Origin: Opitutia bacterium
GTDB lineage: Bacteria; Verrucomicrobiota; Verrucomicrobiae; Opitutales; UBA953
Direction: 5' to 3'
Length of the DNA stretch: 6,973 bases
NCBI GenBank assembly: GCA_947488485.1
Contig: CANKZO010000117.1
Span: 1 to 6,973, forward strand
The position numbers and the translations under genes are program-made. Below are positions 1,338-3,365 of this stretch, piece by piece. The notes beneath the pieces were generated by a model. The model made no database searches and was not told the DNA's origin. It worked only from the letters and a program-made list of their open reading frames with translations. Position 1 is the first letter of the stretch. Every line of letters begins with the position of its first letter.

Positions 1338-3365
1338 ATGTCGGAATCTCCCCGCGATCAGATCCTCCGCCTCCGCGCCGAAATCCTGCGCTATGAGGAG
1401 CTGTATCGGAAGAAGAACGCCCCCGAGATCTCCGACTTCGAATTCGACAAGCTCGTCGACCAGCTGGCCGACCTGGAACGCGAGTTCCCGATGTTCGCCG
1501 GACCCGACCTCGGGATCGGCGATGACAATTCCGAGGGCTTCCAGCAGGCCGACCACAAGGCCCCGATGCTGTCGCTCGACAACACTTACGACGAAGCCGA
1601 CTTCCGCGCCTTCGGCGACCGCCTCTACAAAGCCCTCGGCGGCACGGGCCTCGAATTCATCGTCGAGCCCAAGGTCGACGGCGTGGCGGTCTCCCTCACC
1701 TTCGAGAAAGGTAAGTTCGTACGCGCGGTAACCCGCGGCAACGGCGCCCGGGGCGACGACGTCACGGCCAACGTCAGCCTCATCCGCGAGATCCCGCGCA
1801 CGCTCAAGGGCGCGCCCGACCTCCTCGAGGTCCGCGGCGAGATTTACATGGCGCTGGCGGAGTTCCAGCGCCTGAACGCCGAGCGCGAAGCCGCCGGTGA
1901 GCCGCTCTACGCCAATCCCCGCAATCTCGCCGCCGGCACGGTCAAGCTCCTCGACGGAGAGGAAGCCCGCCGCCGGCGCCTCAGCATCGTCTGCTACGGC
2001 CTCGGCGCCTGCGAGCCGGCTTCCGCTTTCGCTTCGCTCAAGGAGTTCAAGACGAAGCTCAAGGACTGGGGCTTCCCCATCCGCGACGACATCGACGTCC
2101 AGCAGGGCGTGGACGCCGCCTGGAAGGCCATCCAGCAGCTCGACGTCCTTCGTCGCGACCTCCCCTTCCCGACCGACGGCGCCGTAGTGAAGGTCAACCG
2201 CCTCGACGATCAGCGTCGCGCCGGCACGACGAGCAAGTTCCCGCACTGGGCCGTGGCGTTCAAGTTCCCGCCGGACCAGGCCGAGACCATCCTCCGTAAG
2301 ATCAGCATGCAGGTCGGCCGCACCGGCGCCATCACGCCCGTCGCCGAACTCGACCCCGTCCTGCTGGCTGGCTCGACCGTCGCGCGCGCGACCCTGCACA
2401 ACTCCGCCGAGATCGCCCGCAAAGACATCCGCGAAGGTGACACCGTCCGCATCCAGAAGGCCGGCGAGATTATCCCGCAGGTACTTGGCGTAGTCCTCGA
2501 GAAGCGCCCCGCCGACGCGCAGCCCTTCGACTTCGAAGCCCGCCTCAAGGAACTCGGCCTCGACGCGACCCGCGACGGCGAAGAAGCCGCCTACAAGCTC
2601 CGCGCTCCCTCGCGCGACATGAAGATCCGTCGTCTCGTGCACTTCGCCAGCAAGCAGTGCCTCGACATCGACGGACTCGGTGACGCCGTGGCCGAGCAGC
2701 TCGTGGACAGCAAACTCGTCGACGTCCCGGTCGATGCCCTGGGCATTACCCCGCCGCAGTGGCGCATGCTCGAAGGCTTCAAGGATAAGTCTGTCGACAA
2801 CATGATGGCCGGCCTCGAGCAGGCCAAGCAGCGCGAACTCTGGCGCGCGATCCACGCCCTTGGCATCCCGAACGTCGGCATGCAGACCGCCAAGGACCTC
2901 TCTCGTCACTTCAAGTCCATGGACGTGCTGGAAGCCGCTCAGCCCTCCGACCTGCTCATCACCAAGGTCGGCAAGAAGGGCGGCGTCTCGTATGAGTCCG
3001 TCATCTCCGGCGTCGGCATCGAAGTCTCCGAGTCCATCCTCTCCTTCTTCAGCGACCCCAATCACCGCGATTGGGTGAAGGCCATGCGCGCGGCCGGACT
3101 GAACCTCGTCGAAGCCGCCGCGGCGAGTTCGGTCGCAGGCGTCGCCGGCAAGACCTTCGTCCTCACCGGCACCCTGCCCACGCTCGGACGCGACGAAGCC
3201 CGTGACCTCATTGAGAAGGCCGGCGGCAAGGTCTCCGGCAGCGTCAGCAAGAATACACACTACGTCGTCGCCGGCGAAGAGGCAGGTTCAAAGCTCACCA
3301 AGGCCCAGGAACTCGGTGTCGCCATCCTCGACGAAGCCGCCCTTCGCGCGCTGCTCGGCGCATGA
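1338..3365 (+). CDS. ligA: NAD+-dependent DNA ligase LigA, zinc-finger cysteines absent
   Basis: A 675-residue ligase that seals nicks in DNA using NAD+, essential in replication and repair. Full domain order is present: NAD+-binding domain Ia (about 1-70), nucleotidyltransferase (about 70-315) with the adenylated lysine K112 in KVDG, EVRGEIYM (164-171), DGAVVKV (280-286) and AVAFKFPP (305-312); OB fold (about 318-395) with QVGRTGAITPVAEL; a linker at the zinc-finger position; helix-hairpin-helix repeats (about 435-590); and C-terminal BRCT (about 599-675, GKTFVLTGTLP). The Cys4 finger normally found between OB and HhH has no cysteine here: aligned positions are L403, L406, L421 and S425. Other departures from E. 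coli LigA are R24 for His23, F36 for Tyr35, N135 in RGNG for RGDG, K203 for Arg208 and PHWA for PRWA. Length is normal (E. coli 671) and the frame is intact. The ATG at 1338 fits the family N-terminus; no Shine-Dalgarno precedes it. Confidence 0.97.
   Translation: MSESPRDQILRLRAEILRYEELYRKKNAPEISDFEFDKLVDQLADLEREFPMFAGPDLGIGDDNSEGFQQADHKAPMLSLDNTYDEADFRAFGDRLYKALGGTGLEFIVEPKVDGVAVSLTFEKGKFVRAVTRGNGARGDDVTANVSLIREIPRTLKGAPDLLEVRGEIYMALAEFQRLNAEREAAGEPLYANPRNLAAGTVKLLDGEEARRRRLSIVCYGLGACEPASAFASLKEFKTKLKDWGFPIRDDIDVQQGVDAAWKAIQQLDVLRRDLPFPTDGAVVKVNRLDDQRRAGTTSKFPHWAVAFKFPPDQAETILRKISMQVGRTGAITPVAELDPVLLAGSTVARATLHNSAEIARKDIREGDTVRIQKAGEIIPQVLGVVLEKRPADAQPFDFEARLKELGLDATRDGEEAAYKLRAPSRDMKIRRLVHFASKQCLDIDGLGDAVAEQLVDSKLVDVPVDALGITPPQWRMLEGFKDKSVDNMMAGLEQAKQRELWRAIHALGIPNVGMQTAKDLSRHFKSMDVLEAAQPSDLLITKVGKKGGVSYESVISGVGIEVSESILSFFSDPNHRDWVKAMRAAGLNLVEAAAASSVAGVAGKTFVLTGTLPTLGRDEARDLIEKAGGKVSGSVSKNTHYVVAGEEAGSKLTKAQELGVAILDEAALRALLGA

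What the first reader, a model, noticed from the sequence alone, without database searches (positions are those of the whole stretch)
2544..2612. LigA without its four zinc-finger cysteines
Seen: between the OB fold and HhH region, residues 403-425 align without a gap to the first three zinc-ligand positions of E. coli-type LigA, but the ligands are Leu403, Leu406 and Leu421, and the fourth is replaced by Ser425 (one gap in the last loop). The downstream HFAS word is kept. There is no TGC or TGT in any forward frame between 2520 and 2635, so a pair of compensating frameshifts cannot hide the cysteines. Known: the LigA zinc finger is a tetracysteine module that helps clamp DNA, and it is nearly universal. 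Inference: this lineage has swapped a metal-stabilised finger for a hydrophobic mini-core, or this protein is a diverged second ligase.
Basis: partly seen in the sequence, partly recalled or inferred. Interest (0 to 1): 0.78.

Follow-up and report, generated by a model that had tools for sequence, protein, structure and literature searches.

The report
DNA ligase that shed its zinc
An essential bacterial DNA-joining enzyme that normally carries a zinc-holding finger has lost the zinc site in two separate groups of Verrucomicrobiota, and both groups put similar greasy amino acids in its place, which suggests a metal-free substitute.

Summary
The window encodes a full-length LigA (1338-3365, +). 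E. coli zinc ligands C408, C411 and C426 align with L403, L406 and L421; C432 falls at S425 or R426. Pfam finds adenylation, OB, HhH and BRCT domains but no PF03119. It is not a read error: 120 of 120 listed closest homologues lack the ligands. In a sample of the order, 52 of 170 genomes with a LigA match carry a sequence-checked fingerless LigA; in 33 of these 52 no other DNA ligase was detected.

New here: a Tichowtungia-type clade of Kiritimatiellales lost the finger independently (one clade with the Opitutales rejected, p = 4e-57) yet changed in parallel: second and third ligands mostly to Leu/Ile, the CPxC proline lost, a hydrophobic residue gained at 408. AlphaFold predicts a short helix at the CPxC position in both. 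The segment is under purifying selection like the rest of LigA.

Best reading: a working main LigA whose structural zinc site became a metal-free mini-domain bridging the OB and HhH domains. Hydrophobic packing is inferred, not measured. A Wolbachia LigA reported to lack the tetracysteine domain is active, so this is a new variant of a known kind.

The parts
1338..3365 (+). ligA, NAD+-dependent DNA ligase, 675 aa
   Evidence: ORF; NCBIfam NF005932 701 bits against a cut-off of 369 and TIGR00575 650 against 444; 37-38% identity to 2OWO by fold alignment
1536..2273 (+). adenylation domain, residues 67-312, KxDG at 112-115
   Evidence: PF01653 267 bits; KVDG found at 112; aligned with E. coli K115
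2283..2516 (+). OB domain, residues 316-393
   Evidence: PF03120 116.9 bits
2523..2639 (+). segment in place of the Cys4 finger, residues 396-434
   Evidence: no PF03119; alignment with E. coli and relatives; dN/dS 0.122 for residues 395-434
2532..2552 (+). predicted short helix 399-405 where the CPxC knuckle would be; it carries L403, and L406 follows
   Evidence: AlphaFold2 model m8066ce3ac8cd, mean pLDDT 94 for 391-400 and 89 for 401-410
2592..2600 (+). predicted hairpin strand 419-421 with L421 at the third ligand position
   Evidence: AlphaFold2 model, mean pLDDT 78 for 411-420 and 84 for 421-430
2640..3107 (+). HhH region, residues 435-590
   Evidence: PF12826 58.5 bits over two stretches, best 505-541; LGIPNVG at 508; the limits 435 and 590 are mine
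3147..3350 (+). BRCT domain, residues 604-671
   Evidence: PF00533 55.5 bits

Best explanation
This is the main, working NAD+-dependent DNA ligase of a freshwater Opitutales bacterium. The Cys4 zinc finger between the OB and HhH domains has become a metal-free mini-domain: a short helix takes the place of the CPxC knuckle, the following hairpin is kept, and aliphatic side chains at 403, 406, 408 and 421, with an aromatic at 419, fill the space of the zinc site. It does the finger's structural job, holding OB and HhH in position while the enzyme closes round nicked DNA, without zinc. Shown: loss of the ligands, clade-wide conservation, purifying selection, an independent parallel loss, ordered AlphaFold models, single-copy status in most fingerless genomes. 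Inferred: packing of the side chains, absence of bound metal, full nick-sealing activity, and the bridging role, which is known for the canonical finger only.
For: No zinc ligands but all other LigA domains. 120 of 120 listed close homologues lack them. 52 genomes with a sequence-checked fingerless LigA among 170 with a LigA match, of 177 searched. No half-way forms in Opitutales: 61 of 121 rows have 0-1 Cys in the segment, 60 have 4-5 (one of the 60 is the outgroup L027). Purifying selection: dN/dS 0.122 in residues 395-434 against 0.128 NTase, 0.081 OB, 0.134 HhH, 0.068 BRCT (23 sequences, 253 pairs). Parallel loss in Tichowtungia-type Kiritimatiellales, 13 rows in one clade (97*) beside finger-bearing Pontiella-type LigAs; one clade for both losses rejected, p = 4e-57. 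Parallel substitutions: second ligand L 47 of 61 and L 90 of 92; third ligand L40 I12 V9 of 61 and I 90 of 92; Pro404 gone in both. AlphaFold helix at the knuckle in both. Sole ligase detected in 33 of 52 fingerless genomes. A Wolbachia LigA reported without the tetracysteine domain seals nicks (PMC3397958, abstract and passages).
Against: No coordinates were returned, so the packing is not measured; pLDDT dips to 78 over 411-420; pTM is 0.57. The second ligand position is polar or small in 13 of 61 Opitutales rows (R5 K3 A3 Q2), which weakens a strict core there. Kiritimatiellales keep Cys at the first ligand (92 of 92) and have His at the fourth (90 of 92), so weak metal binding there is not excluded. 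No finger-bearing control was folded. Many genomes are incomplete, so 'sole ligase' can be a miss. No biochemistry.
Confidence: 0.8

Rival explanations
1. Simple decay: the finger is dispensable and the segment is drifting, with HhH and BRCT carrying DNA binding alone.
For: The Wolbachia LigA authors suggest that the essential domains were kept and others deleted (PMC3397958, discussion passage).
Against: Length and sequence are conserved: 142 of 142 close homologues keep F397, F399, E400, R402, L403, L406, G407, L408, A410, R412, E416, A417, A418 and L421. dN/dS there is like the rest of the protein, and a second clade converged on similar residues.
Confidence: 0.07
2. A diverged second ligase; a canonical LigA or an ATP-dependent ligase does the main work.
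For: 2 of 52 fingerless genomes (G022, G176) also hold a finger-bearing LigA; 6 of 52 have two OB domains; 16 of 52 have PF01068.
Against: 46 of 52 have a single LigA OB domain and 33 of 52 have neither a second OB domain nor PF01068, including G021, whose LigA lies on a 3.75-Mb contig of a 3.8-Mb genome. In G022 and G176 the finger-bearing copy is the divergent one (41-42% identity).
Confidence: 0.05
3. Another metal site is kept with non-cysteine ligands (Asp, Ser, Asn, His).
For: The fourth ligand is D, N or S in 53 of 61 Opitutales rows; Kiritimatiellales show Cys at the first position (92 of 92) and His at the fourth (90 of 92). Ros-type prokaryotic fingers bind metal with CysAspHis2 (PMC5745721, passages).
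Against: First and third ligands are aliphatic in 61 of 61 Opitutales rows, and second and third are aliphatic or Ala in 92 of 92 Kiritimatiellales rows, leaving at most two ligands from these positions.
Confidence: 0.05
4. Zinc sparing drove the loss: the lineage removes structural zinc from abundant or essential proteins. This is a cause, not a rival mechanism.
For: The single L36 and L31 genes lack the CxxC motifs in 29 of 29 Opitutales genomes tested.
Against: It does not separate the groups: 15 fingerless and 14 finger-bearing genomes are alike. In Tichowtungia-type G249, L36 lacks CxxC but L31 keeps its cysteines.
Confidence: 0.3

Closest known systems
Canonical bacterial LigA (E. coli LigA, 2OWO; T. 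filiformis 1DGS; D. radiodurans 8AK4)
   Different: The Cys4 finger is gone, with a predicted short helix at its first knuckle.
Wolbachia wBm-LigA (PMC3397958; abstract and passages seen)
   Same: A LigA reported to lack the zinc-binding tetracysteine domain, and active in nick sealing.
   Different: An endosymbiont of another phylum; the authors report absence and discuss deletion, and in the passages seen describe no replacement. I did not compare its sequence.
E. coli LigB
   Same: An NAD+-dependent ligase related to LigA; that it lacks part of the finger and the BRCT domain is recalled.
   Different: The window protein scores 200 bits on the LigB model, under its cut-off of 498, and 701 on LigA; it has a BRCT domain.
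Zinc-ribbon-like domains of type IA topoisomerases (E. coli TopA D8/D9; PMC9369019, abstract and passages seen)
   Same: C4 zinc ribbons thought to have turned into metal-free ribbon-like domains by loss of cysteines.
   Different: Another protein and tandem C-terminal repeats, not a single bridge inside a clamp.
Entomopoxvirus NAD+ ligase lacking finger and BRCT (recalled only)
   Same: Recalled as an active NAD+ ligase without the tetracysteine domain.
   Different: Viral and shorter; my search for it found only the Wolbachia paper.

Membership tests
NAD+-dependent DNA ligase LigA | adenylation domain with KxDG lysine | tested here: met
   PF01653 267 bits; KVDG at 112, aligned with E. coli K115
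NAD+-dependent DNA ligase LigA | N-terminal Ia (NAD+-binding) domain | tested here: inconclusive
   PF22745 26.8 bits against a cut-off of 27; E. coli Y22, D32, D36 are kept and Y35 is F (that these are Ia residues is recalled)
NAD+-dependent DNA ligase LigA | OB domain | tested here: met
   PF03120 116.9 bits
NAD+-dependent DNA ligase LigA | HhH domain | tested here: met
   PF12826 58.5 bits
NAD+-dependent DNA ligase LigA | BRCT domain | tested here: met
   PF00533 55.5 bits
NAD+-dependent DNA ligase LigA | curated whole-protein LigA model | tested here: met
   NF005932 701 of 369 and TIGR00575 650 of 444 bits; two other LigA models, NF010931 and NF010930, are under their cut-offs
NAD+-dependent DNA ligase LigA | nick sealing with NAD+ | not testable with these tools
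   needs purified enzyme
LigA of the Cys4-finger type (PF03119) | four zinc-ligand cysteines between OB and HhH | tested here: not met
   no PF03119; ligand positions are L, L, L and S/R. It is filed as LigA, not as a Cys4-finger LigA
LigB | LigB whole-protein model | tested here: not met
   NF005987 200.5 bits against a cut-off of 498
Metal-free replacement as in wBm-LigA | same substitute sequence in place of the finger | not tested
   the Wolbachia sequence was not fetched

The most novel reading that the evidence does not exclude
The structural zinc of an essential replication enzyme has been replaced at least twice in Verrucomicrobiota by the same kind of metal-free helix-hairpin mini-domain, built by swapping zinc ligands for Leu/Ile and dropping the knuckle proline, as one step of a wider removal of zinc from housekeeping proteins; in most of these cells it is the only DNA ligase found.
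Probability: 0.5. Interest if true: 0.75.

Novelty: new variant of a known kind. Interest (0 to 1): 0.6.

Why it matters
The LigA finger is described as holding the OB and HhH domains in position during DNA binding (PMC5052709, passage). Here evolution has run the swap experiment at least twice, with close finger-bearing sisters (Pontiella beside Tichowtungia) to compare. It makes directly testable whether the zinc in LigA is only a staple and what a metal-free staple must contain, and it gives a natural template for zinc-independent ligases. It also warns annotators that absence of PF03119 does not mean a broken ligA.

Tried and rejected
Read errors or frameshift: rejected, because relatives from many contigs agree and no Cys codon occurs in the stretch. 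Second ligase: see rivals. PF03119 as a census of losses: unreliable. It misses fingers that have four Cys (L027/G299; G081/L096; and 19 divergent LigAs of the phylum sample read: L156-L166, L176-L182 and L187, some of whose genomes it missed), so losses were counted from sequences. Phylum sample: PF03120 in 142 of 145 genomes, PF03119 in 90 of 145; only 39 LigA stretches of that sample were fetched and read, 5 of them fingerless.

One or several losses inside Opitutales: unresolved. 96 rows: one clade not rejected, p = 0.42 (long rows left out by me). 72 rows, including the finger-bearing P0351, L099 and P0360: rejected, p = 0.013. The trees are 'quick' ones with weak backbones and need 3 and 6 changes. 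A later regain of the finger is not excluded.

Co-varying sites outside the segment: the strongest is residue 516 (Q in 48 of 61 fingerless rows, mostly A/S/T in finger-bearing; Jensen-Shannon 0.60), which has no counterpart in Kiritimatiellales (0.04), so it may be lineage. Zinc economy through L36/L31: no contrast inside the order. VIA rows cover mainly residues 58-394, so it hardly tests the segment. Rfam: no match in the window.

Not examined: 7 genomes with LigA matches but no PF03119 (G048, G064, G088, G122, G134, G142, G170), and 7 genomes of 177 without a LigA match. No paper describing fingerless LigA in Verrucomicrobiota came up; only open-licence papers are held and mostly listings were seen.

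Full report
What is there. The window encodes one full LigA at 1338-3365 (+), 675 aa. Pfam finds the adenylation domain (267 bits), OB (116.9), HhH (58.5) and BRCT (55.5), the Ia domain just under its cut-off (26.8 of 27), and no PF03119. NCBIfam names it LigA (701 bits, cut-off 369) and not LigB (200 bits, cut-off 498). KVDG is at 112. Against E. coli K-12 LigA, C408, C411 and C426 fall on L403, L406 and L421, and C432 on R426 or S425 in the larger alignment.

Not an error. The 120 listed closest homologues (93-98% identity, best of 7998 scored) each have one Cys in residues 386-450, and among these and 22 locus proteins none of 142 has a Cys at 396-437. They come from many contigs; P0016 and P0090 are named Opitutales MAGs. 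In genome contigs 27 loci were found, 26 of them with record titles of Opitutae, Opitutia, Opitutales, Opitutus, Verrucomicrobia/Verrucomicrobiota, 'Akkermansia muciniphila' or 'bacterium', and one Lachnospiraceae.

Extent. No genome is held for the window, so I used the genome of L001 (G001, 96% identical LigA, one copy). In 177 genomes of its order, 170 have a LigA match and 112 have PF03119. I fetched and read the LigAs of 52 genomes that prove fingerless. The other 118 of the 170 are: 110 with a PF03119 hit and no fingerless copy read, one with a four-Cys finger missed by Pfam (G081), and 7 not examined. Two of the 52, G022 and G176, also carry a divergent second LigA with a finger (L072, L087). 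In a 121-row alignment the state is all or none: 61 rows with 0-1 Cys in the segment, 60 with 4-5 (duplicates, rows under 600 aa and most rows over 90% identity were dropped first, from 146). Named fingerless members are Oceanipulchritudo coccoides (P0241) and Ruficoccus amylovorans (P0335).

Control outside the phylum. In a phylum-level sample centred on the Lachnospiraceae genome of L027, 60 of 61 genomes have a LigA OB domain, and 60 of those 60 LigAs have the four cysteines: 53 by a pattern search and 7 read by eye. So the finger is indeed close to universal there.

A second, independent loss. In a sample of 145 genomes of the phylum five LigAs of another group had no finger (L148, L149, L150, L151, L153). 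The homologue search from L150 names this group Kiritimatiellales/Kiritimatiellaceae/Pontiellaceae MAGs and Tichowtungia aerotolerans (P0198), while Pontiella agarivorans (P0230) and others, at about 67% identity, keep the finger (93 of 120 fingerless, 27 with four Cys). On a 72-row tree built without the finger columns the 13 fingerless Kiritimatiellales rows form one clade (97*) beside the Pontiella-type rows, inside finger-bearing relatives. Holding both fingerless groups together is rejected, p = 4e-57. Within Opitutales, the number of losses is open: one clade is not rejected in one set (p = 0.42) and is rejected in another (p = 0.013).

Parallel substitutions (61 Opitutales rows, 92 Kiritimatiellales rows, P0206 and L027 left out). 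First ligand: L58 V3 against C92. Second: L47 R5 K3 A3 Q2 M1 against L90 I2. Third: L40 I12 V9 against I90 A1 V1. Fourth: S22 D21 N10 T3 A2 E1 P1 H1 against H90 T1 E1. The CPxC proline at 404 is gone in both groups. The proline at 400 is gone in Kiritimatiellales and in most Opitutales rows (two rows displayed, L064 and L075, keep it). Residue 408 becomes I, L or F in 58 of 61 Opitutales rows, and the Kiritimatiellales consensus there is I. So two independent lineages made the second and third ligands aliphatic and removed the knuckle proline. They differ at the first ligand (Leu against a retained Cys) and the fourth.

Selection. Pooled Nei-Gojobori dN/dS over 23 close sequences (253 pairs) is 0.122 for residues 395-434, against 0.128 (NTase), 0.081 (OB), 0.134 (HhH) and 0.068 (BRCT). 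dS is near 0.9, so the ratios are rough, but the segment is plainly constrained. L403, L406, G407, L408 and L421 are invariant in 142 of 142.

Is it the working ligase? Of the 52 fingerless genomes, 46 have one LigA OB domain and 6 have two, and 16 have PF01068. In 33 neither a second OB domain nor PF01068 was found, among them G001 and G021 (LigA on a 3,753,088-base contig of a 3.8-Mb genome). Missed genes in incomplete genomes are possible.

What is known. Reviews describe the Cys4 finger as holding OB and HhH in position during DNA binding (PMC5052709, passage) and as the bridge between OB and HhH (PMC10504179, passage). Deletion work reported for T. filiformis LigA has OB, finger and HhH as essential for the ligase-DNA complex (PMC10244674, passage), and removing finger, HhH and BRCT together from H. 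volcanii LigN stops ligation but not adenylation (PMC1684257, passage). Against universal need, Wolbachia wBm-LigA is reported without the tetracysteine domain and active (PMC3397958, abstract and passages). Cys-to-nothing conversion of zinc ribbons is proposed for E. coli topoisomerase I D8/D9 (PMC9369019, passages). So a fingerless LigA is known; the breadth in free-living Verrucomicrobiota, the independent repeat and the parallel substitutions I did not find in print (open-licence papers only, mostly listings).

Why zinc was lost. All 29 Opitutales genomes tested have L36 and L31 without the CxxC motif as their single detected copies, 15 fingerless and 14 finger-bearing alike. This fits a zinc-sparing background but does not explain which lineages lost the LigA finger. 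Tichowtungia-type G249 has L36 without and L31 with the cysteines.

Verdict. New variant of a known kind.

Noticed in passing
window 8-63, 1128-1183, 4637-4693: Three copies of a REP-like palindromic element (two hairpins, GGCTGACCG..CGGTCAGCC and TTGAGC..GCTCAA) between genes; the first two lie in 89-nt repeats that are 91% identical.
   Followed up: partly
window 92-119, 4741-4768, 6852-6881: A second palindromic element around GGACAGCACGTGGTGCTGTCC, the third copy inverted and 90% complementary.
   Followed up: no
window 122-829 (-): Intradiol dioxygenase-like protein (PF00775 93.7 bits; below the curated cut-offs of the protocatechuate and catechol dioxygenase models).
   Followed up: no
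window 3533-4147 (+): 204-aa ORF, no family over cut-off in Pfam or NCBIfam, with hydrophobic stretches by eye.
   Followed up: no
window 4197-4643 (+): Short ankyrin-repeat protein of 148 aa.
   Followed up: no
window 4818-6791 (+): Hydrolase with weak acetyl xylan esterase similarity (PF05448 27.9 bits, cut-off 21) and a long C-terminal part without a family.
   Followed up: no
L250-L309: 29 of 29 Opitutales genomes tested have zinc-free-type (no CxxC) single copies of ribosomal proteins L36 and L31: a zinc-sparing trend at least in this sample of the order.
   Followed up: partly
G022 (L072), G176 (L087): Genomes with a fingerless main LigA and a divergent second LigA that keeps the finger; the second type groups with L103, L123 and L136.
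   Followed up: partly
G249:C1:1358176, G203:C2:217302, G209:C2:395005, G286:C56:2020: A second OB-domain match in frames of only 420-429 aa in four phylum-sample genomes, perhaps a short LigA-like protein.
   Followed up: no
L076, L078, L084, L085, L090, L094: A fingerless subgroup with an insertion of about a dozen residues in the hairpin loop.
   Followed up: no
P0193: A fingerless Kiritimatiellales LigA with another ending of the segment (WRVAGELQEMIRRKL in place of WRIDDLHHPAMLKRW), so the second clade varies too.
   Followed up: no
L007 (CALQLO010000081.1): Record titled Akkermansia muciniphila MAG whose LigA is 91% identical to the window's Opitutae-type LigA: probably a mislabelled bin.
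   Followed up: no
PF03119: The Pfam finger model misses fingers that have the four cysteines, e.g. L027/G299 and G081/L096.
   Followed up: yes
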